From: Armatimonadia bacterium
GTDB taxonomy: Bacteria > Armatimonadota > Zipacnadia > Zipacnadales > JABUFB01
Direction of reading: 5' to 3'
DNA: 47,021 bases
NCBI GenBank assembly: GCA_039679385.1
Contig: JBDKVB010000183.1
Span: 1 to 47,021 of the forward strand
Below, in pieces: positions 1,128 through 33,616 of the stretch. A program made the position numbers and the translations under genes. Each line of letters begins with the position of its first letter. Positions within the stretch are counted from its first letter, which is position 1. The notes beneath the pieces are model-generated. The model searched no databases. It saw only the letters and a program-made list of their open reading frames with translations, and was not told the origin of the DNA.

Positions 1128-4100
1128 TCACCAGCCGACCAGAACCTCCTGCCCATCGACCCGGATCCTAAGCGCAAAGGTACTGTCATGTCTCCTTGCT
1201 TCCACAGAGTAGCCCCCGCCGTCAAACTGCGCGATGGAATGATCGCCTTCGGGACTGGCCGACTCGGGGCTGGCATTGGTGTGCCCGATGGTGAGTGGCG
1301 ACTCCATGACGCGAATGGTGTCAAAGGTCCGACGGTCAATGATCAGCACCATGCCGAGCTTCGCATCCGCCTGTATCTCCAGGTGTGCAAACTCGAACCG
1401 CACTCCTTGGTCGCCGTTGCCAGTGACCTGTGCCTTGGGGATGCCACTGACTGACGGGCGGCGAAGGCCGGGCGCGGAGTCGTGCGCGGCTAGTTCAGTG
1501 AGCACAGGGTATTGGGGGATCTCCTCGTGCTCGTCGATTCCCCACGCGCGCCGTTGGTCGTCGAGGACGCTCCGCTGCTTGTTCGCGTTGTCCTCCTGGC
1601 GGCGCTCCTTGAGGTATGAGACCTGACTGATCTTCGTTGCCACCCAGCGACGTCTCGCCGCCGGGGCTGCTGCCAGTATCCGCTCCGCGATGCCATGGTA
1701 GAACTTAAGGGTGTCACTAAGGAACCCCGACCGCTCGTAAGCTGCCCCGAGCTCCTCCCAGCTCGCATGCATCTCCCATCCGTCTGAGGACGACACGGCC
1801 CTGAGAATACCTGAGAGCTGACGTTGCGGGTTGTGCGCTCCCCACGCTTCGTTGGACCGTGCAAGCGCCCGCACCAGGCGACACCGAAGCACAAGCAGCT
1901 CGCTGTCGTCCAACTCCAGACGGTGGGGATCACGTAGGGCGTCGATGGCCTCCGAGCCCCACCCCTCTGAGACAAGGGCTTCGATCAGATCGCCGAGGAC
2001 AGTCTTCCCTTCCTCCCTCTTGGCGCCTGCTACTCCCGCCGAATCCCAGGCGTCGAAAGCCTGTCTGGCCTTCTTCGCCTCACCGATTCTGAGGTAGGCT
2101 CTCGCTGCCTCGTCGCCGCGCCCTGCTCGCTGCAGGGCAACCGCTACGTACCGCAACCAAGCAGGGGCATTGGGGCTGCCTTCGGCTTCCCAGGCACCTA
2201 TGACCTCCTGCGCCGCTTTCGCTCTGTCGCTGAGCCCCAGCAGCCACTCAAGCGCTCCCGGCATACCCACCACTTCGGCCTTCGATCGACGGTATTCGTC
2301 GCAGTCTGCCTTGCACTTTTCGAAGAGCTCGACTGCGCGCTGGTGTAGTCCGGACCTGTGATACGCCAGGGCCGCAACCTGGAGCGGAAGGTACCCTCGC
2401 CGCGTAAGCTCCTCGGCCGCCCTGCCGACGGGTGCCCCGTCGGGACCCCAGTCTGTGCCTGGGTTGCCGACCTGGTCGCGCATATTGGCGGCCACCGCCA
2501 CCCACTGGGCTGCAGCTTCCGGTACCACAAGACCCTCGTCAAGTCGAGCGACCAGGTCTCCGGAAAACTGCTGGAGGGACCTTACTCCGACAATGAAGGG
2601 AGTAAGGAGACGCGCCGGGTGTCCGGGCCGCAGGTCGGCGTACTCGCTCAGCATCAGGTGCAGCTCCGCCCAGTGACACCCCTCCCAGTAGCAGCGCCAC
2701 GCATCGTCCTGCATCCCAAGGCCGGCGAACTGCTCGCCCGCTGCAAGGGACTGCCGACGGTACTCGAGCGCATACGCTCCGCATAGTATGGCCTCACGAT
2801 CCCTGTGGGCGCGCTCGTAGTAGCCCTTGGCCCTGTCCAGCAGGCTCGCGCTTCTGTTCTCAATCCCCCACTCCTTGAGCCGGGTTGCCTGGGCGACGAG
2901 GTCGATACCTTCATCCAGGTTGGGGAGAGTGGTTATCCTGTCCAAGCCGGTGGTCAGGTCACCCCACGAGGACCCCGGTCTAGACGCGTCCGCCAGAGCA
3001 CAGCTCGCCTGGATCGCCTCTGGTGTTGCGTGCTGCCAGAGCCGCTCGTAGCCCTGCGCCGTGTCTATGATGAACAGATCACTCTTCGCTCGTGTCAAGG
3101 CGACGTAGAGGCGATTGAGGAAATACCTGAGCTCCAGGGAATCTGAATGGTCAGCGAAGTGGTCCCAGTCTATTGAGGGACAGGCTTCGCCGAACTTGTA
3201 GACAACCACTTTGTCGAACTCGAGGCCTTTTGCATCGGCCACGCTGTAGACGTTCACCGCTTGTTCCTCGGTGACCATCGTCCTGAGGACCTCGTCGCCC
3301 TCGATGTAGTCCGCGAGTTGGTTGGACCCCACCGGGACGATGATCGTGACATTGCGGGCGTTCTGGCGCAAGCTCTCAGCGTCTGAGCCGTCACCAAGGA
3401 CGTAGAGACCTGGGGGTGGACCACCAGGCGATGCCCAGGGGCGCTGGGGTTCGATGCTCTCGCCGACTAGACGACGCCAGAGCAGCACCACGTTGCACAC
3501 CTTGACGATCGGCTCGGTTGATCGGTAGTTCCTGGTAAGGTCGAACCGCTGGAGCCCCAGGGTGTAGTTGCGCTGCCACTGTGGCAGCACGACATCAATG
3601 AGCCCTTCTTGCAGCATGACACCAAGGTTCTCCCATCGGAACCCGGTCGGAGACAAGGTCTGGCAGGGATCGCCGCCAAAGGCGAAGGGAAGGCAGGACA
3701 CAGGTGGGGCAATCTCGTAGCGCGAGAAGACCGACAGACGACGTATAAGGTCGGTCTCGATCCTGGTGAAGTCCTGCGCCTCGTCGCAGAAGACGGCAGT
3801 ATGCCCGGGCCCGAGGTCTCCCTCAAGCAGCGCTTGCCTGATCAGGTCCTGATCGTCCCAGAAGCCACCGTCGCCAGTCAGTTGCCTGTACCAACCGCTC
3901 CAGACCGTGCTGAAGATATCCTGGTACATGTCCTCCGTCAGCGTTCGGTCGTCTCGCGGTAGTTCGCAGTAGTCCTCTGGGGGTAGAACATCATCGAGGC
4001 TCGCGATGTCGGTACACCAGCCCTTCACGTACGAGCGTATAGCGTGCCATGCCTCGTCGGCCGAGAAGCGGCGGTTCCCGGCCTGCTGGAAACCTCGGCC

Positions 4101-5372
4101 GCCTGGCTCCTGGTTGTAGTAGAGGCTACGGAAGCGATGGAAGTCGATGTAGTTGTTCTCTCCAAACCTGCCGCGCATCCCAAGGGGCAGCAACCCGCGT
4201 ACATACTCCAGGAACACGGAGAAGAGGCTATCCACGCTGCTCTTTTCGGGAGGGGCACCCCCACTGGCCACATACTTCGCGTGGTGCTTGAGTATGTTCA
4301 GGACACCTTCACCCGCACGCTCCAGCAGGCTCTCGCTGTAGGTCAGGTAGATCGGCGTCGGGAGGCACGCCCGATGCGGGCTCTGCAGGAACCGATCGCA
4401 GTACTGTGCGTAGAGGAACCACAGCATCGTCGTCTTGCCACTGCCTGCCCGACCGTTGATGAGAAGCGGTAAGGTCAGCATCTCACCGGTCGGGGCACTC
4501 GTGGTCCGAAGGAGGCCCTCCTCCTCGCCAGACAAAGCAAGGTTCGCCGCTTCGTTCTCCTCGATGGCAAGCCAAGCTCCGTCGTCATACAGGAGGTACT
4601 CTGGGTAGGTTCTCTGAGACAACGCGGCGACCTGGTCGAGTTCGGTGATGCCCTCGTGGGCCTGAGCGGGCACCCCGCCGGCGTCGGCGTTCGGCTCCGT
4701 AAGGGCAAGGAGGAGTATGACGCTGTGGGCCGATGGTCCGTCGACTACGACGCGACAGTGCCAGATGCCTACCCCTCCGCCCGGGGTGTAGTGTGGCTCC
4801 CCCGCTGCATCGCCTTCCCCGCCACGCACCAATTCACACACCTGGACTATCAGGTCGCGGTAGTTCAGCCAGTAAGCGCGATCAACCCTCTCCATCTGTC
4901 TGACCCATTCGATGCTCTCGTATACTGCGAGGCCCCCCTTCTTGTCCAGAATGCCTTCCGGGGGCAGAAGCCACTCTTCCAGCAAGGCGGGAAGGGGCTG
5001 CGGCTCTTGTACAGCCCCTTCCACCAGACCTGGTGCGATCCTATTGAGGTTCACGGCGACCCACTCCTCAGTGGCCCACTCCTCTGGTTCGCTCAGGTCC
5101 TCGTAGTCGAAGCTCGCGTAGGCCGCGTCACCCCGTCTGAAAGCCTTGCACAAGTGCAGTACCGGTCTCCCGCTGATTTGCAGGAGGTAGCCGAACACAC
5201 GGTACCTGCCCCACTGGAATAGGTAGCGGGGTGAGCGGTGGCGGCGTGCCTGCGCCGCGATGCCCCCCATCCCCTCTCGGCGCATTGCTTCCTCGAGGTT
5301 CTCTCGCCGGTTCGTCAGTTGCCATTCGCCTATCTGCCTGTCAACTTCAGCCGTCGTGTACAGAAGCACCAT
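1128..5372 (-). CDS. large UvrD/Rep-type SF1 helicase with long C-terminal helical region
   Basis: This encodes 1414 residues from an ATG at 5372, chosen because GGGAGG sits 5 nt upstream; an upstream in-frame extension lacks such a site. All superfamily 1 motifs are visible: Walker A GRAGSGKT (about 307-314), Walker B DEAQD (530-534), GDPCQ (567-571), LTRNYRST (612-619), ADAKGLEFDKVVVY (about 712-725) and LYVALTRAK (755-763). The first 300 residues are of unknown type. The last 600 are helical and alanine-rich with TPR-like spacing, ending in a short beta-rich segment. I see no nuclease motif. It is probably an ATP-driven DNA or RNA translocase. It is the last gene of the co-directional minus-strand run, 192 bp after the HD gene, which suggests a role in the same defence island. 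Its substrate is unknown. Confidence 0.88.
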   Translation of the reverse strand: MVLLYTTAEVDRQIGEWQLTNRRENLEEAMRREGMGGIAAQARRHRSPRYLFQWGRYRVFGYLLQISGRPVLHLCKAFRRGDAAYASFDYEDLSEPEEWATEEWVAVNLNRIAPGLVEGAVQEPQPLPALLEEWLLPPEGILDKKGGLAVYESIEWVRQMERVDRAYWLNYRDLIVQVCELVRGGEGDAAGEPHYTPGGGVGIWHCRVVVDGPSAHSVILLLALTEPNADAGGVPAQAHEGITELDQVAALSQRTYPEYLLYDDGAWLAIEENEAANLALSGEEEGLLRTTSAPTGEMLTLPLLINGRAGSGKTTMLWFLYAQYCDRFLQSPHRACLPTPIYLTYSESLLERAGEGVLNILKHHAKYVASGGAPPEKSSVDSLFSVFLEYVRGLLPLGMRGRFGENNYIDFHRFRSLYYNQEPGGRGFQQAGNRRFSADEAWHAIRSYVKGWCTDIASLDDVLPPEDYCELPRDDRTLTEDMYQDIFSTVWSGWYRQLTGDGGFWDDQDLIRQALLEGDLGPGHTAVFCDEAQDFTRIETDLIRRLSVFSRYEIAPPVSCLPFAFGGDPCQTLSPTGFRWENLGVMLQEGLIDVVLPQWQRNYTLGLQRFDLTRNYRSTEPIVKVCNVVLLWRRLVGESIEPQRPWASPGGPPPGLYVLGDGSDAESLRQNARNVTIIVPVGSNQLADYIEGDEVLRTMVTEEQAVNVYSVADAKGLEFDKVVVYKFGEACPSIDWDHFADHSDSLELRYFLNRLYVALTRAKSDLFIIDTAQGYERLWQHATPEAIQASCALADASRPGSSWGDLTTGLDRITTLPNLDEGIDLVAQATRLKEWGIENRSASLLDRAKGYYERAHRDREAILCGAYALEYRRQSLAAGEQFAGLGMQDDAWRCYWEGCHWAELHLMLSEYADLRPGHPARLLTPFIVGVRSLQQFSGDLVARLDEGLVVPEAAAQWVAVAANMRDQVGNPGTDWGPDGAPVGRAAEELTRRGYLPLQVAALAYHRSGLHQRAVELFEKCKADCDEYRRSKAEVVGMPGALEWLLGLSDRAKAAQEVIGAWEAEGSPNAPAWLRYVAVALQRAGRGDEAARAYLRIGEAKKARQAFDAWDSAGVAGAKREEGKTVLGDLIEALVSEGWGSEAIDALRDPHRLELDDSELLVLRCRLVRALARSNEAWGAHNPQRQLSGILRAVSSSDGWEMHASWEELGAAYERSGFLSDTLKFYHGIAERILAAAPAARRRWVATKISQVSYLKERRQEDNANKQRSVLDDQRRAWGIDEHEEIPQYPVLTELAAHDSAPGLRRPSVSGIPKAQVTGNGDQGVRFEFAHLEIQADAKLGMVLIIDRRTFDTIRVMESPLTIGHTNASPESASPEGDHSIAQFDGGGYSVEARRHDSTFALRIRVDGQEVLVGW

Positions 5373-5564
5373 GGGGTCCTCCCACCTAATGCGCCGGATA
5401 TTGCCCAATGCTGCCTGGGCGTTCGTCTGACGTCGCAGCGTTCGGCGGATTGCGGATTGAGAAGCTGGCGAGCCCAGTCCCCAAGGCGTCTGCATCGGAG
5501 GCAAGGGCCACCTGAACGCCAGGCGCCCCCTGGCCCAAGCGTGTTCGGCACCAACTCAGCCCGC

Positions 5565-8093
5565 CTATTCCTTGGGGATGCAGTCGTGTGCAAAGAGCAC
5601 CTCAAGGGCCTTCCAGCTCACCGGACATAGTGTCCTCAGCCTCGCGTCCTGGATGGTGTCTCCTTTCTGAAGCGGCTCGAAGGCTCCGGCGTACTCTTTC
5701 AGCCATTTCGTTGCCATATCGATCACTTTCCTGTGTTGCTTGGCCCAGGTCGGCTCTACCTCAGCACGCCTGATGAGACGTTGCCTCAGCGAGATATCAT
5801 CATCGTAGAGACGGTAGTGCTCGGGGGGGATCTCAGGCAGGAGCCTGCCGTCCTCGCGCCCGGATTCACGACAGGGGTTACCTATCATGTGTTCCCTTTG
5901 CCAGATCCCGCGCAGGTAGTCGACAGACAGCAGGAGAACCGGCCTTCGAACGAGAGACTGGCGGTCTTCGAGGATCTCTCCGTCCAGAAGCGTGTCTCCT
6001 GGACCCAGACTGAACTCAACGGGCCACAACACCTCGATACCGAGCTCTGTGGGGTTGATACTGAACACAACGTTCTGACAGGTCCCGGGCCCATCGTCAG
6101 GCATCGATGTATCCTTGACCTCCACCGTCCCGAGCGCGTTGTGGAAGGGGAAGTATGAGAACCCCTCTCTGCTGTCGACTACCAAGAGACCGTCCTGTTC
6201 GCGGCGCAGGTCACGATGGCGGCTTGAGTACTGCTTCCAGACCTCCCTGTCGGGATCGTGCCATGGGGGAATGATCCCGTCCAGGAGCGGAAGACGTTGC
6301 CGGACCCGTATGGTCTCAGTCCCGCTGTCTACCGCGAAGCGCTCCACGACCATCATCTCTTCACCGAATTCCCGTTTCATCAGGTAGGTCGCGGGGCTAC
6401 GCCATTCCCGGTCTCTCTCGGACGCCCCGTTGGCCACGTTCCAGCCAATAGGTGCGATGTCGCGGAAGAACAGGGCGCAGTAGAGCTTACCTCCAAGACG
6501 GGGGAAGGGAATGATCCCCCCTGAGGCCCACCGCAGGGGAAATTCCACGGGATCCACCACCTTCACCGTGGGTTCCCGGGACAGGAGAGCTTGATGGATC
6601 TCATCCGACAGGCGATAGGCGTCCTCCGCGCGGTTCTGGGGCACCATCTCCCGAAGCATCAGGTTCTTGCCCCTGTTGTTGTAGACGCCCCATTCCTGTC
6701 CATCAAGTTGGATTTGCAGCGTATGGAGACCACTACGTTCCACCTTGATGATCACGGGGTGCTTAAGATAGAGGACCTCGAAGGCCTTGCGGGGCCAGGC
6801 GTGGTGGATGTGACGTCTCTGGACTAGCAGTGGAAAGCCATCACAGAGGCTGCGTCTGCATATGTCAGCATACGGGTCCGGGTCCTGATCGAGGGTGCCT
6901 GCGCTGTAGTCTACGTCAAGGAGCCCTCCGAGGCTAGCCGTGTCGCCGATCAGGGGGAGACTCAGCCACTCCTCGATCCGCGTCCGCAGGTCAGCCTCGT
7001 TGTCCCCGCCGAGTACAGCGACTTCCTCGGGCAACACGTCCCCCTTCCCAACTAGCTCCACCAGCTCCGCTCGGCAGCTCTCCAGTTCATCTCGGACCAT
7101 CGTCTGCGCCAGAGCGATCAGGTCTCTATGCGACTCTGCAGGCGCCCCATCCAGCAGCGGCGCCGGGGCCTGATCAAGCCACTGATCGTCTAGGCTGACA
7201 GGTTCGATCACAACCATCTCTGGGAGCATATGGACGCGCCGCACGGTGCGATGCATCAGGTAGTGCGTGTTCTGGGCTCTCAGGAGCCCCTCAAGCTCCG
7301 GGGTTGGTTGGTCTAGTTTGCGTATCTCCTCTCTCACTTCCGCTGCCTTGGCCTCAATCTGCTCCAGGTCACGAACCCAGCCAGAGCCGATCTGGCAGCC
7401 GTCAGACAGCGCGAGGAGGGAAGCCAGAACGCCCACCCGTATGGGGTATATCTTGGCCATTTGCTCATCGCCGTGAAAAGGATACGTATCGTTCTCCTCT
7501 ACCCCTGCATTACGGCGGTCCGCGCCTCGCCGGTGCAGGCCCACCACCTTGGCGACGATACGGGCCCAACCGCCGTTGTGCGCCATCAGAGGGTTGGCCG
7601 CCCTGGCAACGCGCCAAGCACCGATATCGGCATGAAGCTTGCGGATCGTCGACGGGCCGATGATGCCAGACGCGCACTCTTTCTGGACCCGGCCGCGGGC
7701 ATCGGCCGATATCAGCTCACAGTCCTGGTTCCTCACCTCCCCGAGCGCGGTCTGGCGGAACTGCTCGACTTCGCTATGCGGGCAGGACATGCCCGCATCG
7801 TGCAGGTATGCTGCGCACGCTAGGGTGAACCACTCCCCGGGATTGTGAAGGACGGGTTCTTCGAGCTTGTGCTCTATGGCCTGTATGATGCGCGGGACCG
7901 CGGCGTAGGTCTGTCTCGCATGGTCCCAGTAGTGGTCGATCATCATCCACATGGGCATATGCGGGGTCGGACTGAGTGCGCCTTGCCACGTCGGGATGAG
8001 GACCGTGAACAAGCTCGAAAGGTACTCATCCCGACCGATACCGCGGACGGCGAAAAACTCATTGGCAGCTCTCACCTCGGCGTCGATATCCAT
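5565..8093 (-). CDS. HD-domain (HD-CE-like) protein, 842 aa
   Basis: The ATG at 8093 is preceded by AGGAAGGAAGGG; the 54-codon extension upstream has no ribosome site and was rejected. The N-terminal third has the spacing of an HD phosphohydrolase: H58, the H98-D99 doublet in AAYLHDAGM, H154 in RKLHADIGA, H187 in VVGLHRR and D231 in LLALSDG. This order matches the HD-CE type found in prokaryotic conflict systems. The remaining 600 residues are mixed alpha/beta without a motif I recognise. HD enzymes hydrolyse phosphoester bonds of nucleotides or nucleic acids; the substrate here is unknown. The same HD layout occurs in the CARF fusion at 19832-22066, so the island carries two related HD enzymes while its Cas10 has none. 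Confidence 0.72.
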   Translation of the reverse strand: MDIDAEVRAANEFFAVRGIGRDEYLSSLFTVLIPTWQGALSPTPHMPMWMMIDHYWDHARQTYAAVPRIIQAIEHKLEEPVLHNPGEWFTLACAAYLHDAGMSCPHSEVEQFRQTALGEVRNQDCELISADARGRVQKECASGIIGPSTIRKLHADIGAWRVARAANPLMAHNGGWARIVAKVVGLHRRGADRRNAGVEENDTYPFHGDEQMAKIYPIRVGVLASLLALSDGCQIGSGWVRDLEQIEAKAAEVREEIRKLDQPTPELEGLLRAQNTHYLMHRTVRRVHMLPEMVVIEPVSLDDQWLDQAPAPLLDGAPAESHRDLIALAQTMVRDELESCRAELVELVGKGDVLPEEVAVLGGDNEADLRTRIEEWLSLPLIGDTASLGGLLDVDYSAGTLDQDPDPYADICRRSLCDGFPLLVQRRHIHHAWPRKAFEVLYLKHPVIIKVERSGLHTLQIQLDGQEWGVYNNRGKNLMLREMVPQNRAEDAYRLSDEIHQALLSREPTVKVVDPVEFPLRWASGGIIPFPRLGGKLYCALFFRDIAPIGWNVANGASERDREWRSPATYLMKREFGEEMMVVERFAVDSGTETIRVRQRLPLLDGIIPPWHDPDREVWKQYSSRHRDLRREQDGLLVVDSREGFSYFPFHNALGTVEVKDTSMPDDGPGTCQNVVFSINPTELGIEVLWPVEFSLGPGDTLLDGEILEDRQSLVRRPVLLLSVDYLRGIWQREHMIGNPCRESGREDGRLLPEIPPEHYRLYDDDISLRQRLIRRAEVEPTWAKQHRKVIDMATKWLKEYAGAFEPLQKGDTIQDARLRTLCPVSWKALEVLFAHDCIPKE

Positions 8094-8307
8094 GGTACCC
8101 TTCCTTCCTGTGTGTTGCAGGAACCTATGAGACTTGATGGCTCCAGACCATCGCCGACCCTCGAACCCCTTAGGTCCCGCGACCGTCGGTCCTCGGCAGA
8201 CACGCTTGTTAGCCCGGAAGTCCGGCTTGGGTGCGGGAGGCATGCGCCCGTTCACACGAGCGCATGCCCGAGGGCCTGGCTCCCAGGACGTCTGGTCGCC
8301 ATAGGTG
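8094..8307. other. intergenic between the small membrane gene and the HD gene
   Basis: These 214 bp carry no convincing gene. They contain a perfect 9-bp inverted repeat at 8239-8268 (listed separately) and the ribosome site of the HD gene. Confidence 0.4.
8239..8268. repeat. perfect 9-bp inverted repeat with 12-nt loop
   Basis: GGCATGCGC (8239-8247) and GCGCATGCC (8260-8268) form a GC-rich stem between the tubulin/small-membrane-protein pair and the HD gene. There is no T-run, so it is not a textbook terminator. It could be an operator or an RNA processing or pausing element. Confidence 0.45.
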
Positions 8308-8448
8308 TCAGGCTGTTAGCGTCCTCGCAACCACGGCTACTGCCCCGCTCACAAGTGCGAGGAGTAGAAGGCAGCACCGCCACCAAGGCTTGCGCGGGAC
8401 GTACCAGCGCTTTGGGTCCCATCGCTTTCGTCTCTGGTGAGTCCTCAT
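8308..8448 (-). CDS. 46-residue single-pass membrane protein coupled to the tubulin-like gene
   Basis: The ATG at 8448-8446 overlaps the TGA of the tubulin-like gene (8447-8445) as ATGA, a classic translational-coupling junction. The product has a strongly basic N-terminus (MRTHQRRKRWDPKRWYVPRK), two tryptophans at the membrane boundary, and one hydrophobic helix at about residues 24-41 (CCLLLLALVSGAVAVV). The positive residues before the helix suggest the N-terminus stays in the cytoplasm. I do not recognise a family. Given the coupling, it may anchor or regulate the tubulin-like protein at the membrane. The overlap and the composition are the only evidence. Confidence 0.55.
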   Translation of the reverse strand: MRTHQRRKRWDPKRWYVPRKPWWRCCLLLLALVSGAVAVVARTLTA

Positions 8449-11400
8449 ATCCCCAGCACACCGTTGCAGTACTGCCAGCAAGCCGCCCAGATGGCCCATT
8501 GCAGATGGGTCCTGTTCAGCCCTTCAGGGCCGGTGCTGGTCGTGTCTAGAGGTGGGAGGGCAACAGCGGCGGGGCTTTGCGGCCTCATTGCTGCCTCAAC
8601 CGCGGGGCTGGCAGACGGGTCGATGGCGAGGTACCTCGGCAAGTCCTCCCGGCAGAACGTGATGAGCCGGGATCGGGCTGATTGGGCCAGCGGGGTGTCC
8701 GCCATCAGGGCAGTGAGGGCACCGTCGAGGTTGCAGGCGAGGCCAAGGTCGCAGACGGCCTGTGGGCCGGCTCCAGTCTGGCAGTCGGGTATCTGCAGCC
8801 GACGTGCCGCTACCCCTCCGCCGGTATCGGCAAGCGGATACTCGACGCTAAGCGAAGTGCCCAGAAGCGCGAAGCACACGGCGAAGCTCTGGAAGGCTTC
8901 CCAGTTCCCCAAGTGGCGACAGACGCTGGGGTGGAGCGGCAGTTGGGACTCCTGAACGACGTGGCCGGCCAGCAAGAACTCCTCGACGTAGTCCGTCGCA
9001 TTCCGCTCTTCTGCGTGGCAGTGGCAAGGGAGGCCGCCCCTCCACTCATAGTAATCACTCCGTGTTCGTGGGTAGTACTCCCACTCAGGCAGCCGCAGAC
9101 GAGCGGCGACGCGGGCGACGGCAACGGAGTACCGGAAGGGCGAACCCGCCGCAACCCCCGCAGGGCGGATCTGGTTCGCCGTCAGGGCGGCGTTTACGGC
9201 AACGGGGAGCGCCGAAGCGGCACTGGGGATATAGGCGCCAAAGCTCTCCTCAGTGGGCGTCGCGTCTCCCACCAGCAGGAGCGCCGGCTCGGACTTGGAC
9301 ACCAGGGAAGCAGCCATCTCATCGCCGAACTGTTGAAGATCCCGACCGCGCGCCGTTGCCTCCAGGGCGGCGATCTCCCAGATGTCTTTGGTGGCCAGCG
9401 GCCCCCCACACTTGTTCCGGCCATCCTGGACGAAGAGCTCTGGCTTGTGACGGTAGGTGAGAGTCTTCCTATACGACCCACTCACCCCATCGGCAAGCCA
9501 CTGCCGGAGCTGGTCCGGGGGATCGTAGCCCGGCACGTCTGGGCAGACGAGGAAGCAATCGAACGACGTGGCGATGCCGTCCGCTCCCACGGTAGTCCCG
9601 AAGGCAAGCCCGCCTCCGCTACGGAACTGGCTGTGGAACTGCCACTGCATCTGGCCGAGGAGCGCGCCGATGATGCCGCTGTCGGTTACCAGACTGACGT
9701 AGAGCTGTCGCTCGGTAGGGCCTCCGGGGTCTGGAAGGTAGCAGCGTGGTAGTGCTTTTGCATACTCCTGCCGGAAGGTAAGGTCCTTCTCGCTGGCCGT
9801 CTGCATCTGCTCGCGACAGGCCTGAAGATAGCCAATCCACCCGTCTGCCGTCTCACCAACCTTCATCCAGAGGTCGTTGGTTAGTGCAAGCATGTCCGCG
9901 AGCGTGAGTTCATACGCCTGGAGCAGCGTATGCCATTCCACGAGGGTGTGGTACCATTGGTAAGGACCCTCCACGAACACCGCCTGATTCCCTCTGCTCG
10001 GGGGCTGCGAGAGCAGGTTCTCCTCCTCCCCCTTCAGGACGCCCTCGGCACGCTGCATGACCTTCTCGTCGGCGAACCTGTTGAGCCACGCCCGCACCTC
10101 CGCCAACTCCGCATCCAGCAGCTTCCGGCAGCTCAGCAGGACGTCCCGCGCGATGACTAGACTGTACGGGCGCTGCTCCAACGTCCGCCACTTGCCCTGC
10201 TGGGTGTCGTAGAACAGCTCAAGGAGTTGGTGGGCCAGTTGGACGATGAAGTCTCGGCATATACCGGCCCGCTGGTAGTTGATCCAAGCCCACAGTGTCG
10301 CATCGTGCCCAGGGTCAGGGGTGTCAGTCTGTTGCCCCACTGTCTGCGCGGTGAAGCCATGGCACTGTGAGACAACGTCCTGATTCGGCACGGGGCGGAA
10401 GATCCGGCTGAGGTCAAGCCAGTCTACTACAGTCGCATATGGGGGCCTGGGGCCCTCCGCATTTGCTGGCCCGTTGGTGTTGAGATTGCGCCGCAAAGTC
10501 ACGAGACCCTCGAGCGAATCGGGCTGGTTCAACTCGGGCCACCGAACGGGCAGGCCGCCTGCAGTCGCGACGGTTAGGCTAAGCGTCCCAGGGCCCGTGG
10601 TTCGCAGCGCCGCCTCAGCGCGCTGCCGCCCCTTGTCGGCTTCGTCGGGCGGCACAGTGAGCAGCCTGTCGTAGATCTCACGCGCGAACCCGAAAGCAAA
10701 GCTGGTTTCCAGAGCCTTCCAGTCATACAGGTACGTGTAGATGCCTGGCACCATGTACCCTGGCTCAGAAGGCCCACCGGGCACCTGCACGGTACAGTGT
10801 TGTCGCCAGTTGGCGGCGGATGTCCCTGCCACACCCGTCCCGTAAGTGCACAGCAAGTGGTCGGCCAGTGCAGGGCAGACCCCGAAGAGTGGGGCCTTGC
10901 CGTTCAGGTTGACCCCGCCGCGCCCCTCTCCGTCGATGATGAAGCACCCGTCGAACAATTCGCTGTTGCTGACCGACGTTCCAGGGCAGTAGTCGACATG
11001 GCCAGGCTTCATAAACAACCGCTCCAGCTCCCTCATCCCCGCGAAACCGCGAGCGTTGCCCTGGCCCCGGCTCTGGTCGTCGCCGAAGATGGCCCGGAAC
11101 CCATTGGGCAATGCGACGTAGGCGTGGAAGGGAGTCGACGGTGGCTTCTCCTTGCGCAGGATTTGTGCTACATCCAGGAGCATCCCGGAACCGGTGCCAC
11201 CCGACTGTGACCCGATCATGACGATGAAGTCCTGCCCCTGCACCAGTGCCCGCAACCGGGGCGCCAAGTCGCTGGACTCCAGGAAGAACCCAACACGACC
11301 GGCAGGGCGTACCTGGCCGTAGCCTGTCTCAGGGATGATGCCGTTGGGGTTGCTGATCTTCTGCGCCTCTGACCTCCCGAGCCACCGGTCGATGTAGGGA

Positions 11401-11660
11401 TGGGAACGGCCAGCCTGAATGTCTACAATGGCCGGCCCCGGACGCTGCTCAAGTTGGTAGAACTCGGTGGATTGGGGGCTGACATCGATCTGGAACCCGT
11501 CAGGCAGCTTGTACTGGTTGTCGTCCTCCCCGGGACCGTCTATGACCAGCATCGAGAACCCGGCGGCGGCGGCGCTTCCGTACTCGTGTTCCAGCCTATG
11601 TTTGAGCCAGTTACACACACCGCGCCCCACCCCACCGACACCGACGACGAGGATTGACAT
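8445..11660 (-). CDS. giant tubulin/FtsZ-superfamily GTPase (Tubulin_2-like), 1071 aa
   Basis: The ATG at 11660 has AGGAGGGG upstream. The first 20 residues (ILVVGVGGVGRGVCNWL) form the glycine-rich first nucleotide-binding loop of the tubulin/FtsZ fold, and GGTGSGM at 154-160 is the tubulin signature that contacts GTP phosphates. The family is expected to bind GTP and may form filaments. At 1071 residues it is more than twice FtsZ length; the C-terminal 700 residues carry no motif I can name and no membrane segment. Tubulin_2-type proteins are commonly annotated as tubulin-like. Here it lies 36 bp downstream of a vWA lipoprotein and is coupled to a tiny membrane protein, which points to a membrane-linked assembly rather than cell division. 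Substrate and partners are inferred. Confidence 0.75.
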   Translation of the reverse strand: MSILVVGVGGVGRGVCNWLKHRLEHEYGSAAAAGFSMLVIDGPGEDDNQYKLPDGFQIDVSPQSTEFYQLEQRPGPAIVDIQAGRSHPYIDRWLGRSEAQKISNPNGIIPETGYGQVRPAGRVGFFLESSDLAPRLRALVQGQDFIVMIGSQSGGTGSGMLLDVAQILRKEKPPSTPFHAYVALPNGFRAIFGDDQSRGQGNARGFAGMRELERLFMKPGHVDYCPGTSVSNSELFDGCFIIDGEGRGGVNLNGKAPLFGVCPALADHLLCTYGTGVAGTSAANWRQHCTVQVPGGPSEPGYMVPGIYTYLYDWKALETSFAFGFAREIYDRLLTVPPDEADKGRQRAEAALRTTGPGTLSLTVATAGGLPVRWPELNQPDSLEGLVTLRRNLNTNGPANAEGPRPPYATVVDWLDLSRIFRPVPNQDVVSQCHGFTAQTVGQQTDTPDPGHDATLWAWINYQRAGICRDFIVQLAHQLLELFYDTQQGKWRTLEQRPYSLVIARDVLLSCRKLLDAELAEVRAWLNRFADEKVMQRAEGVLKGEEENLLSQPPSRGNQAVFVEGPYQWYHTLVEWHTLLQAYELTLADMLALTNDLWMKVGETADGWIGYLQACREQMQTASEKDLTFRQEYAKALPRCYLPDPGGPTERQLYVSLVTDSGIIGALLGQMQWQFHSQFRSGGGLAFGTTVGADGIATSFDCFLVCPDVPGYDPPDQLRQWLADGVSGSYRKTLTYRHKPELFVQDGRNKCGGPLATKDIWEIAALEATARGRDLQQFGDEMAASLVSKSEPALLLVGDATPTEESFGAYIPSAASALPVAVNAALTANQIRPAGVAAGSPFRYSVAVARVAARLRLPEWEYYPRTRSDYYEWRGGLPCHCHAEERNATDYVEEFLLAGHVVQESQLPLHPSVCRHLGNWEAFQSFAVCFALLGTSLSVEYPLADTGGGVAARRLQIPDCQTGAGPQAVCDLGLACNLDGALTALMADTPLAQSARSRLITFCREDLPRYLAIDPSASPAVEAAMRPQSPAAVALPPLDTTSTGPEGLNRTHLQWAIWAACWQYCNGVLGI

Positions 11661-11696
11661 GATCGGCCCCTCCTGCGTGATGGTGGAAAGCTCTGT

Positions 11697-13844
11697 CTAG
11701 CTCCGAACCCTGATCAAGCCGATGGCAGTCGCTTGACCCTTCCTGAGGCGTGATGGTACTGCGAGACCCCAGACGAACCGCGCGCAACCGACCTGCACCC
11801 CCGCGCGGTCGATGCCCCAGAACGCGAAGCGGCGGGGCCGCACGCGCAGTGCCCGTTTGCCCTTTGCCGGCGTGGGGTCCTTCCAAGGAGTCGTCCTCAC
11901 CCATGCGACCCGTTTCCCTGCATTCCTGAAGGTGGCGAGTGCCTGACCCGTTCCGGCGTGGGTGATACGTATGTCCATGCTCATGCGCCGGGCACCTAGT
12001 AGCCGGCAGAGCAGCCATGCCCAGGAGAGAGCAATCAGTGCAACGTATAACAGGGCGAGAAGGATGAGCACTCGGAGCGGCGTGCTCCACCCCGTTGCTC
12101 GGATATGGACAACCTGCATGCTCGTGTCATGGCACGTGGACTCCACGTCTCCTGCTGGCGTCCCGGTATGCTCGACGTGAAGCACGCAGTCGCCCGGCAC
12201 TGGCTGCTGGATGAACAGTCTCGTCCGCATAGGCACAGCGAACCGCGTTGAGAAGCGGTTGCCGTTGGCCTTGAGCCAGAGAACCGGCGAGTCCTTGCCA
12301 TCGGGCATCTCTGAGAGCTGAGCCAGGTAGAGATGGTTGGGATGGTTGCTGAACTGCTTTTCGGGCTGGGCAGGCTTCCCGGAGAGCATCAGCGTCCCAT
12401 CCACCGCGAGGAACTGCTGGGTGAAGGGGAAGCCAGTGAGGGTGACCGGCGTGAGTTCGAGATAGGGGACTGAGGCCACCTTGACGTTGTAGGTAGTGGT
12501 GGCATCCAGGACGCTTCCCGCCTGTACACGCAGAGTCAGCTTGTAGACACCGGGGAGCTTCGTGGGTATCGCCGGCTCACCGTAGTACAGACTCCTGGCA
12601 GGCTTACCGAACTCAAGGTTGACGGGCCCGCCTGTTGGCCCAAGGACCTGGGCGCTAAGGCCGAGGGGGTAACGCGCGTCTGACTCCACTGGCTTCCCAC
12701 TGTGCCGAGCGAAACTTGCAACGACGCGGAGGCTCTTTCCCTGCGGGTGAACCGTCTTGGGCAGCACCAGGTTCATCTGCAGAGGTACTTCGTTACGGTA
12801 GACCTCGACTCGGCCCGTTCCCTCGGTGATCTCATACTGCCACTGCCCAGTCTCGGGGTCAAAAACCGAGATGATGTCGTAGCCTTTGAACTGGCGCCTG
12901 CGGGTATCTGGGTCGGCTCCCGGCGACAGGGCCGTGCCGTCGGGCCGCAGTATCCGGAGCCTCAATTCGGGTGTCGCGGGGAAAACGTGGAACTCCACGC
13001 GGTCCAGGTACGGCCTGACCGTGAACGTCTTTCGGCCTGCGGTCAAGATGTCTGGCGGGACGTTGGGGATGCCGAAGATGCGGTTGATGACCTGATTGAA
13101 GCGCTCCCTGAGCTCGGACACCGACTTGATGCACGCCACACGCTCGCTACCGGCGATCGCACTCCAAAGTTCGGCGCACTCCGCCCAGGTGTCACCTTGC
13201 TGGTCTACGGCGATCACGTAGAGCTCGCAGCCATTCGGGACCAGTTCCTTTTGGACGAAGGCACTGATCTCATCGAAGTAAGCTGAGGTGCTGAGCTTGC
13301 GGCTATCCTCAGGCTTACCATCCGTGAACAGGACGATTCGACACTTGCGCCCCTCGTCAAAGCCTCCGGCAGAGCGCAAGCTGCCGGTCGCAGCCTTGAG
13401 TGCTGCCAGTGTGTTGGTGCCCCCCATGCCCTTTGCGGCCACGCGGGCCGAAACCTCCTGAAAGCCAGAACTGGGAGTGACTGCAGTGAGTGGCGCAGTC
13501 TCCGGGCTCACACGGTCCCCGAAGTCCAGCACCGCGATCCGGTTAGGTTGGTCCTCGGCGCTCTTCTCAGATATGTTGGCGATCAGGTAGCGAGCTGCCT
13601 CGACACGCACGCCCTGCGGATCCGTGCCCTGGGGACCGTTCATGCTGCCTGACTGATCCAGAAGCAGAGCCACGTCCACAAGAGGCGGGCTTGGTTCTGG
13701 TAGCTTCAGAGTGATCTCCGACCTTGCGGGCGGCGCAGTGCACCCGCCCAGCCCACACAGGGCCACGATCAGCACAGCGAGGCAGGCGGCTGCACACAGG
13801 CGCCACCTGACTGTGACGCTCTCTTCTGCCATCGCCAACTCCAT
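11697..13844 (-). CDS. von Willebrand factor A domain lipoprotein with C-terminal membrane helix
   Basis: This encodes 715 residues. A second ATG at 13832, with GGAG 7 nt upstream, is an alternative start four codons in. The N-terminus has a lipoprotein signal (LAVLIVALCGLGGC, lipidated Cys about 35). A vWA domain follows at about 56-260 with an intact metal-binding MIDAS site: DQSGS at 63-67, T143 in GMGGTNT and D175 in LFTDGKPED. Beta-rich segments follow, then a transmembrane helix at about 592-613 and a basic tail of about 100 residues, probably cytoplasmic. vWA domains make metal-dependent protein contacts and often work with AAA+ ATPases. The gene starts 9 bp after the AAA+ gene stop and precedes the tubulin-like gene, so a vWA/AAA+ partnership spanning the membrane is plausible. 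Confidence 0.82.
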   Translation of the reverse strand: MELAMAEESVTVRWRLCAAACLAVLIVALCGLGGCTAPPARSEITLKLPEPSPPLVDVALLLDQSGSMNGPQGTDPQGVRVEAARYLIANISEKSAEDQPNRIAVLDFGDRVSPETAPLTAVTPSSGFQEVSARVAAKGMGGTNTLAALKAATGSLRSAGGFDEGRKCRIVLFTDGKPEDSRKLSTSAYFDEISAFVQKELVPNGCELYVIAVDQQGDTWAECAELWSAIAGSERVACIKSVSELRERFNQVINRIFGIPNVPPDILTAGRKTFTVRPYLDRVEFHVFPATPELRLRILRPDGTALSPGADPDTRRRQFKGYDIISVFDPETGQWQYEITEGTGRVEVYRNEVPLQMNLVLPKTVHPQGKSLRVVASFARHSGKPVESDARYPLGLSAQVLGPTGGPVNLEFGKPARSLYYGEPAIPTKLPGVYKLTLRVQAGSVLDATTTYNVKVASVPYLELTPVTLTGFPFTQQFLAVDGTLMLSGKPAQPEKQFSNHPNHLYLAQLSEMPDGKDSPVLWLKANGNRFSTRFAVPMRTRLFIQQPVPGDCVLHVEHTGTPAGDVESTCHDTSMQVVHIRATGWSTPLRVLILLALLYVALIALSWAWLLCRLLGARRMSMDIRITHAGTGQALATFRNAGKRVAWVRTTPWKDPTPAKGKRALRVRPRRFAFWGIDRAGVQVGCARFVWGLAVPSRLRKGQATAIGLIRVRS

Positions 13845-13853
13845 CGTGTGCGT

Positions 13854-16106
13854 TCACTCCTCTTTGCGGTTGATGACCACCTTGCCGTCTACCCAGTCGA
13901 GATGCAGAGCTTGCCCCCCCAGTTCCGGCTGAGCGGCCAGGAGTTCGGCAAGCGAGGCCGTCACGACATGCTCCACGGCGCGTTGCATGGCCCGAGCGCC
14001 GTAGCGTTCGTCGTAGCCCGTCGCCACCAGGTGCTCGAGCAACCCCTCACTGGGTACCAAGGTCAGCCCCCGACGCTGGACGCCTGTCCGATGCATCAAG
14101 GCCGTGATCTCACGCCGGGCGATCTGGCGCACGGTGTCGCGATCTAGTGGTGAGAAGCTCACTACTCGGCTGAGGCGGTTCAGGAACTCCGGTCGGAAGG
14201 CTGTGGCCAGTTCCTTGTTGAGGTCCTCGTCAGTGATCTGCCGAGTGCTTGCCTGGGAGAAGCCAACCGGGGCCCTGCCGAAGAGGTAAGCGCCGACGTT
14301 CGACGTCATGATGATGATGGAGTTCAGGAAACTGCCTGTACGACCGGTCTCGTCGGTAAGGCGTCCCTCTCCGAGGACCTGCAGAAGCAGGTTGAACACG
14401 CTATCATGCGCCTTCTCGATCTCGTCAAAGAGAACCACTGAGAAGGGGGTTGCGCAGACGTCCTCCACCAGCCTACCCGCTTCTTCCTGCCCGCCTCGAC
14501 GGCCGCAGAGCTTCGCAAAGCCGTCAGCCCCGGCGAACTCCGACATGTCGTAGCGCACAAGTGCTTCCTCCGTGCCAAACAGGTGCTTAGCCAGCGCACG
14601 CGCCAACTGAGTCTTCCCGACTCCAGTGGGGCCCGCGAAAAGCAGTGTGCCTACCGGCCTGCTCTCTGGGGCGACCTCTGCCTTGTAGGCCAGCACCACA
14701 TCGCAGGCGGCGCTTACGGCGCCCTCCTGCCCGATCACGTGTGCACGGAGGGCTTCCTCAACCTGCGCTCTGGTCACAGCAGCGTCCGTACGGACTATGT
14801 CCTGACGTAGGCCTGACAAATTGCACACTGCGTTCTCGACGTCCCGAACAGTGATGGGGCCGGCCTCTGGCGACTCTGACCGGTAGGCGATGACCTCACT
14901 GAGAAGCTCTAGCGCCTTGCCGGGGTACTTTCTGGTGCGGAAGAAGCGGCCTGACATGTCCACGAGACGCTCGCAGACGCCCTCTCCAAACTCGACGGCG
15001 CCACCCGCCGTGTTGCTGTCAGTGAACCTGGCCACCCGGTCTCGGACCATCAGAAGAGTGTCTTCACGACATGGTTCGGGTACGTGCAGTAGGTGGAAGC
15101 TCTCCGCGAACCGCGGGTTGAGCTTCAGCATGAGCTTGTAGCCGTCGGAGTCCGTTGCGCCGATGATGGTGATCTCGTTGCGCGAGATGAAGGGCAGAAG
15201 AAGGTTGGCGATGGTGCGGTCGAGCTTCTCGTCGAAGCGTCCAGTGGTCACGGCCAGGTGGGTCTGATCCAGAAACAAGATGGCGTTCTGCTCGATGCAG
15301 TTCTCAGCCACGAGCTGTGTCTTGTTCTCAAGCTCGTGGGCGTATAGGACCGAGGCTTGAAAGGCTGCAGGCACACATTCGTAGATGTGGCGATCGCGAA
15401 GATCACCGCGATCCACACGTGCATCGCCTGCAGCGATCCATGTGGCCAAGGCGTGGACTACAGCGCTCTTGCCGGTCCCCGAGTCACCGACCAAGAGTAT
15501 CTGCTGCCGCGGCCCACTCAAGGCCGAGATCAGGGACTCCACCAAGTCGTCCCGCACGTACATCGGCAGTATCTCGCGCTCGGTAGCCAGCTCGACGAGG
15601 TCACGTCCGAGGTTGGGAAGATCAGCAGCTTCGGGTATCCGATCGGCAGCATCACCTGACAGGGCATGGCGAGCCCTCTCTAGGACCTTCGCGATCTCCG
15701 GGCGGGCTGCCGATACCGCCTGCGCGAACACCTGGAGCACTTGGAGGAACTGCTCCTCCGTGGGAGGACCATACTCGATGGGGAGGTACCATGCCGCCCG
15801 CAGTTCGCCGTCCCTGGCATCCCACTCATACTTCGGGACGATAGTGTCCCAATGGAGCGACATCAGGCGCTCGAAAACGACCCGCTTTGCCCTCTTGGGC
15901 ACTCTGGCCAGGCCCACAGCCTGCACAAACAGGAAGTAGGGACTCCACCGAACTAGAATGCTAAGGCCTTCCTGGCCGTCCCCAGCGCTTCCAGCCTCCA
16001 CCACGAAGGCGTCGAGCGAGGTCGACCATTCATACTCCCATCCCAGAGCCGCCAGGTACCCATCCATCGTGAGCCGCATCGAGGCGGCATCGAGAGGCTT
16101 TCCCAT
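13854..16106 (-). CDS. YbjN-like domain fused to double AAA+ Clp-type ATPase
   Basis: This encodes 750 residues. Residues 1-140 resemble the YbjN/type III secretion chaperone-like fold. Two AAA+ modules follow. NBD1 has Walker A GDSGTGKS (207-214), but its Walker B reads LFLDQTH (277-283), with Gln in place of the catalytic Glu. NBD2 has Walker A GPTGVGKT (492-499), Walker B VVLFDE (557-562), a TSN sensor 1 (601-603), the Arg-finger segment FRPEFLNR and a GAR sensor 2, all intact. It lacks the Clp N-domain and the ClpB coiled-coil middle domain, so it is a Clp-like unfoldase or remodeller of unusual architecture, perhaps with NBD1 as a structural or trap ring. It heads the second block of the minus-strand run, 156 bp after the nucleoside hydrolase; no strong promoter is visible there. 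Confidence 0.85.
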   Translation of the reverse strand: MGKPLDAASMRLTMDGYLAALGWEYEWSTSLDAFVVEAGSAGDGQEGLSILVRWSPYFLFVQAVGLARVPKRAKRVVFERLMSLHWDTIVPKYEWDARDGELRAAWYLPIEYGPPTEEQFLQVLQVFAQAVSAARPEIAKVLERARHALSGDAADRIPEAADLPNLGRDLVELATEREILPMYVRDDLVESLISALSGPRQQILLVGDSGTGKSAVVHALATWIAAGDARVDRGDLRDRHIYECVPAAFQASVLYAHELENKTQLVAENCIEQNAILFLDQTHLAVTTGRFDEKLDRTIANLLLPFISRNEITIIGATDSDGYKLMLKLNPRFAESFHLLHVPEPCREDTLLMVRDRVARFTDSNTAGGAVEFGEGVCERLVDMSGRFFRTRKYPGKALELLSEVIAYRSESPEAGPITVRDVENAVCNLSGLRQDIVRTDAAVTRAQVEEALRAHVIGQEGAVSAACDVVLAYKAEVAPESRPVGTLLFAGPTGVGKTQLARALAKHLFGTEEALVRYDMSEFAGADGFAKLCGRRGGQEEAGRLVEDVCATPFSVVLFDEIEKAHDSVFNLLLQVLGEGRLTDETGRTGSFLNSIIIMTSNVGAYLFGRAPVGFSQASTRQITDEDLNKELATAFRPEFLNRLSRVVSFSPLDRDTVRQIARREITALMHRTGVQRRGLTLVPSEGLLEHLVATGYDERYGARAMQRAVEHVVTASLAELLAAQPELGGQALHLDWVDGKVVINRKEE

Positions 16107-16262
16107 CGCAATCGCTCACACCCGCACAAAGAGTACCGTCCTGACAACGAGTGCTACGCTTGGCCGCAGGGCCCAACCTCATCATCTCAACGACCGCAAA
16201 CTGTCACCGAACAACGATGGCCTCTGGGAGCCCTACCGGCATCTGCCGACGGCAAGACACGG

Positions 16263-17390
16263 TCAACTCGTCACCGGTGGCAGCCGTTCCGAATCCATAC
16301 AGACTGCCCTCAGTGAACGCATCAGACGCAGACGGAACTCAGGGCTGTCCACTGCGAGCGCGATGTCCTTCCGTGGCTCACGCTCCCGGTTGCCGCGAGC
16401 GCGGTGGTCAATGACCGTCATCCCCCGAACCGGTGAGTCGTGGGCGCCCAAGAAGGCGTCAGCCATTCCGGCCTCGGCAGAACCCAGGGCTCGGTCCCGC
16501 GCTGTGATGACTTGCACGTTGTACGGCCTCGTCCAGACCAACTCGGGCCAGATCGCCACCGCCATCGCCAGCGGATCGTGCATGTAGCAGCCGTTGAACC
16601 CTTCGTTGTCCCGGTAGAACCCCATGTAGTGACTGGTGATGTCCCGGACGAACTTGCCCCGCTTCCACTCCTCCGGGCGCAGGCCGACCTCGATGTCCGC
16701 CAGCGTCAACGGACACTGCAGCGCCACGTCCAAGCCGACCACCGTCATCGGGATGGGGCTCGCGAACACCTCGGCCGCCGCCACCGGGTCCATCCACACG
16801 TTGAACTCACCGTAGGGGGCGATGTTGCCCGGCACCTTGAAGGCACCGCCCATGAAGACGATGCGGGGGATGTTGGCGGCAATGCCCGGCTCTCGCCGCA
16901 GGGCCTCGGCCACATTGGTCAGAGGCCCGGTCACCAGCAGCACCACGTCGCTGGGCTCGCGGTAGGTCTCCAGGATCAGACCCACGGCGTTCGTTGCTGA
17001 CAGCCGCGCCGGGTCGGGATCGGGCTGGCAGTTCTGCCCCAGCCCCCCGGGGCCATGGATGAACTCCGCGTCGGGCTTGTCACCCGGCGGCCAGCCGCTC
17101 AGCGGCATATCCAGACCCGCACACACCGGGAAGCCCACCTGCAGCCCGGCCGCATCGAAGACCTTCAGCGCATTCAGGGCGCTCTGCCGAGGCCCCACAT
17201 TGCCGCACGACGTCCCCAGCCCCACGATCTCGACTTGGCCACAGCCGATCGCCAACAGCAACGCCAGTGCATCGTCCACCCCTGGGTCCATATCCAGAAG
17301 TAGCCTGGCCGAGTGGTGCGTCAGGCCGGCCACCGCACCATCGATCTCAGAGCACAGAGCATCGATCTCGTGCCATCGCAGACCGTCCAT
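16263..17390 (-). CDS. inosine-uridine-type nucleoside hydrolase in the CRISPR operon
   Basis: The start is the ATG at 17390, which shares a base with the upstream stop (TGATG) and has AAGGAGG 10 nt before it; the longer frame begins inside the upstream gene. The 375-residue product has the calcium- and ribose-binding signature DMDPGVDD (33-40), TGPLTNVA, MGG, EFNVWMDP (195-202) and the HDP motif at 271-273. All hallmark residues of the IUNH family are therefore kept. These enzymes cleave the N-glycosidic bond of ribonucleosides to base and ribose. Housekeeping salvage is the default function. However, it is translationally coupled inside a run headed by Cmr genes and CARF effectors, so a role in nucleotide depletion during infection is a real possibility (inference). 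Confidence 0.88.
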   Translation of the reverse strand: MDGLRWHEIDALCSEIDGAVAGLTHHSARLLLDMDPGVDDALALLLAIGCGQVEIVGLGTSCGNVGPRQSALNALKVFDAAGLQVGFPVCAGLDMPLSGWPPGDKPDAEFIHGPGGLGQNCQPDPDPARLSATNAVGLILETYREPSDVVLLVTGPLTNVAEALRREPGIAANIPRIVFMGGAFKVPGNIAPYGEFNVWMDPVAAAEVFASPIPMTVVGLDVALQCPLTLADIEVGLRPEEWKRGKFVRDITSHYMGFYRDNEGFNGCYMHDPLAMAVAIWPELVWTRPYNVQVITARDRALGSAEAGMADAFLGAHDSPVRGMTVIDHRARGNREREPRKDIALAVDSPEFRLRLMRSLRAVCMDSERLPPVTS

Positions 17391-18487: not shown

Positions 18488-18506
18488 CGCTGCAGTTCCT
18501 CCCAAT

Positions 18507-19625: not shown

Positions 19626-19831
19626 GCGTACCACCTCCAAAGGCGATGCTCAAGGCGACAGGCCACGCTGCACATCTGCAGATCCGACTCGAGCGGCCAT
19701 ATAGCGAGGCGTCCCATAGGACGTTCTGGTCGCCGCCCTACACTTCACATGGAGCAGCTCCGAGCCGTCGCGATCGATAGGCTCCGAGGAACGCGGCAGG
19801 GGGTGCATCGCTTCTGCCCTCGGGCCTCAGG
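19626..19831. other. 206-bp intergenic between the two CARF genes
   Basis: No gene or strong promoter is visible. It contains the ribosome site of the downstream CARF gene. The gap is unusually long for this otherwise tightly packed operon. Confidence 0.35.
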
Positions 19832-22066: not shown

Positions 22067-22067
22067 G

Positions 22068-23132: not shown

Positions 23133-23135
23133 CGC

Positions 23136-25682: not shown

Positions 25683-25683
25683 G

Positions 25684-33546: not shown

Positions 33547-33554
33547 GCGACCCC

Positions 33555-33597: not shown

Positions 33598-33616
33598 GAA
33601 GAAGGGAGACAGCAGC

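What the first reader, a model, noticed from the sequence alone, without database searches (positions are those of the whole stretch)
8445..11660. 1071-residue tubulin-superfamily protein in a defence island
The GGTGSGM signature and glycine-rich N-terminal loop are clear, but the protein is more than twice the usual length and sits with a vWA lipoprotein and a Clp-type ATPase. A GTP-dependent filament in an antiviral setting would be unusual.
Basis: partly seen in the sequence, partly recalled or inferred. Interest (0 to 1): 0.55.

Follow-up and report, generated by a model that had tools for sequence, protein, structure and literature searches.

The report
Tubulin-like protein in CRISPR defence locus
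A long bacterial relative of tubulin and its membrane-anchored partner sit, with a nucleoside-destroying enzyme, in the tail of a type III CRISPR antiviral locus, and relatives elsewhere keep much of that arrangement; this suggests, but does not prove, that a cytoskeleton-like protein helps carry out CRISPR immunity.

Summary
Confirmed: window 8445-11660(-) is a 1071-aa Tubulin_2/FtsZ-like-1 protein with intact T1 and T4 loops. A weak model of its first 340 residues matches only FtsZ/tubulin/TubZ folds in the 50 Foldseek rows shown. Its length and vWA partner are normal for this family.

New here is the context. It lies in a 15-gene same-strand run that starts with type III-B CRISPR: Cmr1, Cas10 (GGDD), Cmr3-6, two CARF proteins (one CARF-HD), an unknown gene, nucleoside hydrolase (IUNH), YbjN-Clp ATPase, vWA lipoprotein, tubulin. 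Orthologues occur in 4 of 291 phylum genomes, the same four that hold the closest IUNH relatives. In G091, vWA-tubulin sits between cas6 and a CRISPR array whose other half heads the contig carrying cas1/2, CARF, CARF-HD, Cas10 and IUNH. Of 40 other Tubulin_2 loci, 39 show no type III genes or array. Exception: G041 has REC-HD and no Cas10 match.

Best reading: an accessory module of type III CRISPR in most of these genomes. Mechanism is inferred. A 2023 survey already mentions vWA and tubulin proteins near CRISPR.

The parts
8445..11660 (-). FtsZ-like-1 / Tubulin_2 protein, 1071 aa (T1 GVGGVGRG, T4 GGTGSG)
11697..13844 (-). vWA lipoprotein, 715 aa: lipobox LGGC(35), MIDAS DQSGS 63-67, one TM about 592-612, about 103-aa tail; conserved partner of the tubulin
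13854..16106 (-). YbjN-Clp: ClpA/C-like double AAA ATPase with a YbjN-like N-domain, no M-domain; D1 Walker B has Gln (LFLDQTH), D2 intact
   Evidence: N-domain homologues in G003 and G041
16263..17423 (-). IUNH nucleoside hydrolase, likely start 17390; DMDPGVDD and HDPLA motifs intact
   Evidence: phyletic partner
17390..18553 (-). P3, unknown family, likely start 18487; its stop overlaps the likely IUNH start by one base; type III-linked gene (next to cas6/cas1 in G042)
18507..19640 (-). CARF7 protein (CARF_DUF2103 type)
19832..22075 (-). CARF-HD effector (PF24391 HD-CE) with full HD metal motif
22068..28934 (-). type III-B effector genes Cmr6, Cmr5, Cmr4, Cmr3, Cas10 (GGDD, no N-terminal HD nuclease motif seen), Cmr1
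5565..8255 (-). second HD-CE protein (likely start 8093); same strand, not conserved with the module
1128..5504 (-). UvrD-like helicase protein; same strand, not conserved with the module

Best explanation
The tubulin is the cytosolic half of a membrane-anchored vWA-FtsZl1 pair that, with a nucleoside hydrolase (IUNH) and a YbjN-Clp ATPase, forms an accessory module of type III CRISPR-Cas in this lineage. Proposed working: Cas10 detects invader RNA and makes cyclic oligoadenylate; CARF and CARF-HD proteins bind it; the HD domain strips phosphates from nucleotides and IUNH cleaves the resulting nucleosides so that they cannot be salvaged. The GTP-binding tubulin assembles at the membrane, tied to the vWA protein's cytosolic tail, and gathers or licenses this response or damages the envelope; YbjN-Clp remodels the assembly to reset it. 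Shown by sequence: the families, motifs, gene order, phyletic coupling and CRISPR linkage. Inferred: every step after Cas10, including polymerisation, that cOA acts on this module, the substrates, and the role of Clp. The module can also be wired to another sensor: in G041 a REC-HD protein stands where CARF-HD would.
For: (1) 15 same-strand ORFs from Cmr1 to UvrD, largest ORF-to-ORF gap 191 nt; P3 stop overlaps the likely IUNH start. (2) Tubulin orthologues in 4 of 291 phylum genomes; those four hold the four closest IUNH relatives, 100/79/67/46% identity, next 41%. (3) CARF-HD relatives in 5 of 291, three of them tubulin carriers (about 1e-5, uncorrected for kinship). (4) G003 repeats P3-IUNH-YbjN-Clp and has a type III locus with CARF-HD. 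(5) G091: cas6/vWA/tubulin/array, then array/cas2/cas1/kinase/CARF/CARF-HD/Cas7-Cas5/Cas10/IUNH; identical repeats and contig ends that complete one repeat. (6) Control: 39 of 40 other Tubulin_2 loci have no type III genes or array; the fortieth, G043 C56, has tubulin and a related vWA beside III-B. (7) FtsZ fold, active-site motifs.
Against: G041 has IUNH, YbjN domain, vWA and tubulin but no Cas10-palm2 match in its genome and its Clp AAA part is missing. G003 has no Cas10-palm2 match and no vWA match; its tubulin is cut by a contig end. In G042 and G043-C32 the same CARF-HD type III locus occurs without this tubulin or IUNH. None of tubulin, vWA, Clp or IUNH has a CARF/SAVED domain. Only four orthologous genomes; two are in one family. 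The full AAA Clp is seen complete only in the window. Defence genes cluster, so adjacency alone is weak. The IUNH of G091 does not form an exclusive clade with the other three.
Confidence: 0.5

Rival explanations
1. A self-standing defence or conflict module (IUNH + YbjN-Clp + vWA + tubulin, with its own HD-type sensor) that merely shares a defence island with type III CRISPR and is not controlled by cyclic oligoadenylate.
For: G041 carries the module with REC-HD and no Cas10-palm2 match; L012 (Myxococcota) has vWA-tubulin with no array on its 7.4-kb contig; published GTPase- and MoxR-centred conflict systems contain vWA and tubulin.
Against: Position inside the cas locus in G091, between cas6 and array; overlap of CRISPR-linked P3 with IUNH in the window and the same order in G003; co-occurrence with CARF-HD in 3 of 4.
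Confidence: 0.3
2. A membrane-remodelling or envelope machine of the kind proposed for FtsZ-like-1 proteins in 2010, next to CRISPR by chance.
For: vWA lipoprotein with a TM segment; membrane remodelling is the published prediction for the family; most Tubulin_2 loci in the phylum lie away from CRISPR.
Against: This subfamily is a separate clade (100/100), patchy (4 of 291), coupled to IUNH and in type III loci in the window and, by inferred contig adjacency, G091.
Confidence: 0.13
3. The tubulin domain is a non-polymerising GTP switch (or an inactive scaffold) that only regulates vWA or Clp, so the filament idea is wrong although the defence link is right.
For: The 2010 paper could not identify T6-H7 elements in FtsZl1 and allows that they may not form filaments; no T7-type loop was identified here; G091 reads GGAGSG at T4.
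Against: T1 and T4 glycines are conserved in all four complete sequences; the fold matches FtsZ.
Confidence: 0.25

Closest known systems
FtsZ-like-1 (FtsZl1, PF13809 Tubulin_2) with vWA partner, Makarova and Koonin 2010 (PMC2875224, read parts 1-2 of 5 of the text)
   Same: N-terminal FtsZ-like domain, about 1050 aa, vWA gene next to it, kinases in some loci
   Different: There: GTPase, OmpA, kinases, membrane remodelling; no CRISPR, IUNH or Clp mentioned in the parts read
CRISPR-linked vWA systems with kinase, phosphatase, transmembrane and tubulin proteins, Altae-Tran et al. 2023 (PMC10910872, passages only; authors recalled)
   Same: States in one sentence that vWA-related systems associate with CRISPR loci alongside tubulin domain proteins
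   Different: No gene order, sensor, IUNH or YbjN-Clp in the passages seen; its supplements could not be read, so whether this very module is in them is unknown
GTPase-centric (GAP1-N2) and MoxR-vWA ternary conflict systems, 2020 (PMC7159879, passages only)
   Same: Tubulin + vWA as conflict-system parts; ATPase/vWA pairing as theme
   Different: Here the ATPase is Clp-type with YbjN domain, not MoxR, and no GTPase gene was found in the cluster
Cat1 filament NADase of type III CRISPR, Baca et al. 2025 (PMC12162218, abstract and introduction only)
   Same: Filament-forming type III effector that destroys a nucleotide cofactor
   Different: Cat1 is one CARF-TIR protein; here sensor, enzyme and the putative polymer are separate genes

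Membership tests
FtsZ-like-1 / Tubulin_2 | PF13809 above curated cut-off | tested here: met
   93.4 bits vs 27
FtsZ-like-1 / Tubulin_2 | FtsZ/tubulin N-terminal fold with T1 and T4 loops | tested here: met
   Motifs; Foldseek, all 50 rows shown are FtsZ/tubulin/TubZ; VIA Z 13.9, rmsd 3.3 over 180 residues; the model itself is weak, pLDDT 41
FtsZ-like-1 / Tubulin_2 | vWA gene in the operon | tested here: met
   36 nt upstream; also in G041, G091, L012
FtsZ-like-1 / Tubulin_2 | coiled-coil middle and helical C-terminal domain | tested here: inconclusive
   full-length model unusable, pLDDT 30.8
FtsZ-like-1 / Tubulin_2 | GTP-driven polymerisation | not testable with these tools
   needs assay
type III CRISPR accessory (CARF) effector | encoded in type III loci in more than one genome | tested here: met
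   window and G091 (C78/C36 adjacency inferred); a more distant tubulin in G043 C56
type III CRISPR accessory (CARF) effector | CARF or SAVED sensor in the same protein | tested here: not met
   none in tubulin, vWA, Clp or IUNH; so it is not filed as a CARF effector, only as a linked module
type III CRISPR accessory (CARF) effector | activated by cyclic oligoadenylate | not testable with these tools
   needs assay
MoxR-vWA ternary conflict system | MoxR-type AAA ATPase | tested here: not met
   ATPase is ClpA/B/C-like with two AAA modules; bpMoxR only a weak part match
GAP1-N2 GTPase-centric conflict system | TRAFAC-type GTPase gene in the cluster | tested here: not met
   no such Pfam match among the scanned neighbours at 1128-19640 or 19832-28934
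inosine-uridine nucleoside hydrolase | PF01156 and DxDxxxDD / HDP active-site motifs | tested here: met
   259 bits; motifs intact
ClpA/ClpC unfoldase | two AAA modules with intact Walker B in D2, ClpP-contact loop, Clp-N domain | tested here: inconclusive
   D2 intact, GF at the ClpC loop position, but the N-domain is YbjN-like and D1 Walker B is Gln

The most novel reading that the evidence does not exclude
Type III CRISPR has recruited a membrane-tethered, GTP-driven tubulin polymer as part of its effector arm: cyclic-oligoadenylate-activated CARF-HD and a nucleoside hydrolase destroy nucleotides in two steps while the vWA-tubulin assembly concentrates them or breaks the envelope, and the same module can be re-wired from CARF to a two-component (REC-HD) sensor.
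Probability: 0.22. Interest if true: 0.87.

Novelty: new variant of a known kind. Interest (0 to 1): 0.58.

Why it matters
FtsZ-like-1 proteins have been predicted since 2010 without a tested function in the papers seen here. A subfamily tied to type III CRISPR and to one enzyme with a known assay gives a direct handle: test whether a tubulin relative acts in immunity, and whether sensing, assembly and nucleoside destruction are linked. It would also add a separate, sensor-less effector arm to type III CRISPR, whose known effectors mostly carry their own CARF domain.

Tried and rejected

Considered and rejected: 'too long to be ordinary' (normal for the family); MoxR ternary system (ATPase is Clp); Clp as a fixed core part (complete only in the window, N-terminal part in G003, YbjN domain alone in G041); HD-CE and UvrD downstream as core parts (no match in the other carriers' fetched loci).

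Limits of counts. Control: 40 loci chosen by me, not at random, from about 95 matches; 15 of the 40 are shorter than 19 kb because contigs end or I asked for less; type III genes were sought by tblastn at 1e-6 with III-B and III-D queries, so divergent ones could be missed; I included G043 C56 knowing that it has Cas10. Trees: the tubulin tree used 22 of 39 intended rows (17 loci were dropped because my pattern found no N-terminus; G003 was left out for lack of an N-terminus); the IUNH tree used 8 of the 12 non-system matches. A first IUNH tree had G041 in a wrong frame and is discarded. Probabilities ignore kinship and use a post hoc identity threshold.
Full report
Observation. It is a Tubulin_2 protein (PF13809, 93.4 bits, cut-off 27). 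The model of residues 1-340 has low confidence (pLDDT 41.3, pTM 0.54), yet all 50 Foldseek rows shown are FtsZ, tubulin or TubZ (best E 9e-5) and VIA-align gives Z 13.9 to S. aureus FtsZ, rmsd 3.3 over 180 residues. The T1 and T4 loops are intact. The rest could not be modelled. The length is normal: most open frames of Tubulin_2 in the phylum are about 900-1270 aa, and the 2010 type protein has 1051.

Neighbourhood. From 28934 down to 1128 all 15 genes run on the minus strand: Cmr1, Cas10, Cmr3, Cmr4, Cmr5, Cmr6, CARF-HD, CARF, P3, IUNH, YbjN-Clp, vWA, tubulin, HD-CE, UvrD-like. ORF-to-ORF gaps are at most 191 nt (351 nt before HD-CE if its likely start 8093 is used); the likely IUNH ATG (17390) overlaps the P3 stop by one base. 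Cas10 has GGDD and no HD nuclease motif was seen, so it should signal through cyclic oligoadenylate (inference from the known type III pathway; abstract and introduction of PMC12162218). No CRISPR array was found in the window. The vWA protein has a lipobox, MIDAS residues, one TM segment near its C-terminus and a tail of about 103 residues: an outside vWA domain tied through the membrane to the cytosol (inference). The ATPase resembles ClpA/C in both AAA modules, lacks the M-domain stretch, has a natural Gln in the D1 Walker B and carries a YbjN-like domain instead of Clp-N.

Relatives. The tubulin subfamily is rare: 3 of 46 class genomes and 4 of 291 phylum genomes, while Tubulin_2 in general is in 81 of 291. 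The same four genomes (G000, G003, G041, G091) hold the four closest relatives of IUNH, with a step from 46% to 41% or less for the rest. In the tubulin tree window, G041, G091 and a Myxococcota sequence (L012) form one clade at 100/100, apart from 18 other Tubulin_2. In the IUNH tree the window, G003 and G041 sequences group at 100/100; G091 joins next together with a long-branched G283 sequence.

Gene order in the relatives. G003: P3-IUNH-small ORF-YbjN-Clp to a contig end, tubulin at another contig end, and a separate III-D-like locus with CARF-HD. G041: REC-HD, IUNH, YbjN domain without AAA part, vWA, tubulin; the HD part of REC-HD matches that of CARF-HD (26% identity, E 2e-10) with the same metal motif. 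G041 has no Cas10-palm2 match. G091: contig C78 carries Cas6 (PF10040), vWA, tubulin and a CRISPR array running off its end; contig C36 begins with an array of the identical repeat, followed by cas2, cas1, an FHA-RT-primase fusion, a membrane protein kinase, CARF, CARF-HD, Cas7/Cas5-type genes, Cas10 and IUNH. C78 ends with the first 32 nt of the 37-nt repeat and C36 starts with its last 5 (a 5-mer with frequency 0.0014). I infer that the contigs touch; this is strong but not proof.

Control. I took 40 other Tubulin_2 loci with up to 20 kb each: 39 have no tblastn match to the type III queries and no array; one, G043 C56, has tubulin and a vWA protein related to the window's directly beside cas6, Cas10, Cmr3, Cmr4, Cmr6, CARF, cas1 and, on the same contig, an array. 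That tubulin is outside the window clade, so the pairing may have arisen more than once. CARF-HD type III loci without this tubulin exist too (G042; G043 C32). P3 occurs in 4 of 291 genomes (G000, G003, G042, G043) and lies next to cas6 and cas1 in G042: it belongs to the CRISPR side.

Interpretation. Gene linkage, phyletic coupling and swap of the HD sensor (CARF-HD or REC-HD) suggest a module: HD sensor, IUNH, YbjN(-Clp), vWA, tubulin, most often under type III CRISPR. HD phosphohydrolases of other families turn nucleotides into nucleosides (recalled), and IUNH cleaves nucleosides; the pair would make depletion irreversible. Where the tubulin acts is the weakest step: scaffold, trigger or membrane effector. 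Against a purely CRISPR role stand G041 and the lack of CARF domains in the module proteins. The rival of an independent module in a shared island keeps 0.3.

Known and new. FtsZl1-vWA pairing is known (PMC2875224). Tubulin in conflict systems was proposed in 2020 (PMC7159879). [quoted passage not shown]); I could not read its supplements, so this module may be among its entries. What I did not find in the searches named is the coupling to IUNH, the YbjN-Clp, the embedding between cas6 and array, or the CARF-HD/REC-HD swap. Three accessory-gene surveys were not held.

Noticed in passing
L057:2139-4850 (-) and 4831-6150 (-), genome G091: FHA-reverse transcriptase-archaeo-eukaryotic primase fusion beside cas1/cas2, followed by a membrane Ser/Thr kinase, inside the type III locus. 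A possible phospho-regulated adaptation module.
   Followed up: partly
window 17390-18553 (-): P3: unnamed family with no Pfam, NCBIfam or PADLOC match, next to cas6/cas1 in G042 and between CARF and IUNH here; 4 of 291 genomes. Candidate new type III accessory gene.
   Followed up: partly
L102:1102-10484 (-), genome G043: Divergent tubulin + vWA with an 898-aa and a 353-aa unknown protein directly beside a III-B locus; a second, separate tubulin-type III pairing.
   Followed up: partly
L009:39-9539, own genome contig C40: Second Tubulin_2 of the same genome lies with HSP70, GrpE-like and trypsin genes, resembling the published tubulin-HSP70 class of conflict systems.
   Followed up: no
L006:9275-9910, genome G041: The YbjN domain of the Clp protein stands alone, its AAA part gone, at the same place between IUNH and vWA.
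   Followed up: partly
window 13854-16106 (-): D1 of the Clp ATPase has a natural Glu-to-Gln change in Walker B (LFLDQTH), like a laboratory ATP-trap mutant.
   Followed up: no
window 1128-8255 (-): UvrD-like 1458-aa protein and HD-CE protein downstream of the tubulin, not found with the module in other genomes; perhaps a separate defence pair.
   Followed up: no
L100:2649-13955, genome G091 contig C22: A second Cas10-containing locus in G091 without the C78/C36 repeat.
   Followed up: no
window 31948-35110 (+): Two tandem sulfatase genes, 72-81% alike in DNA over several stretches.
   Followed up: no
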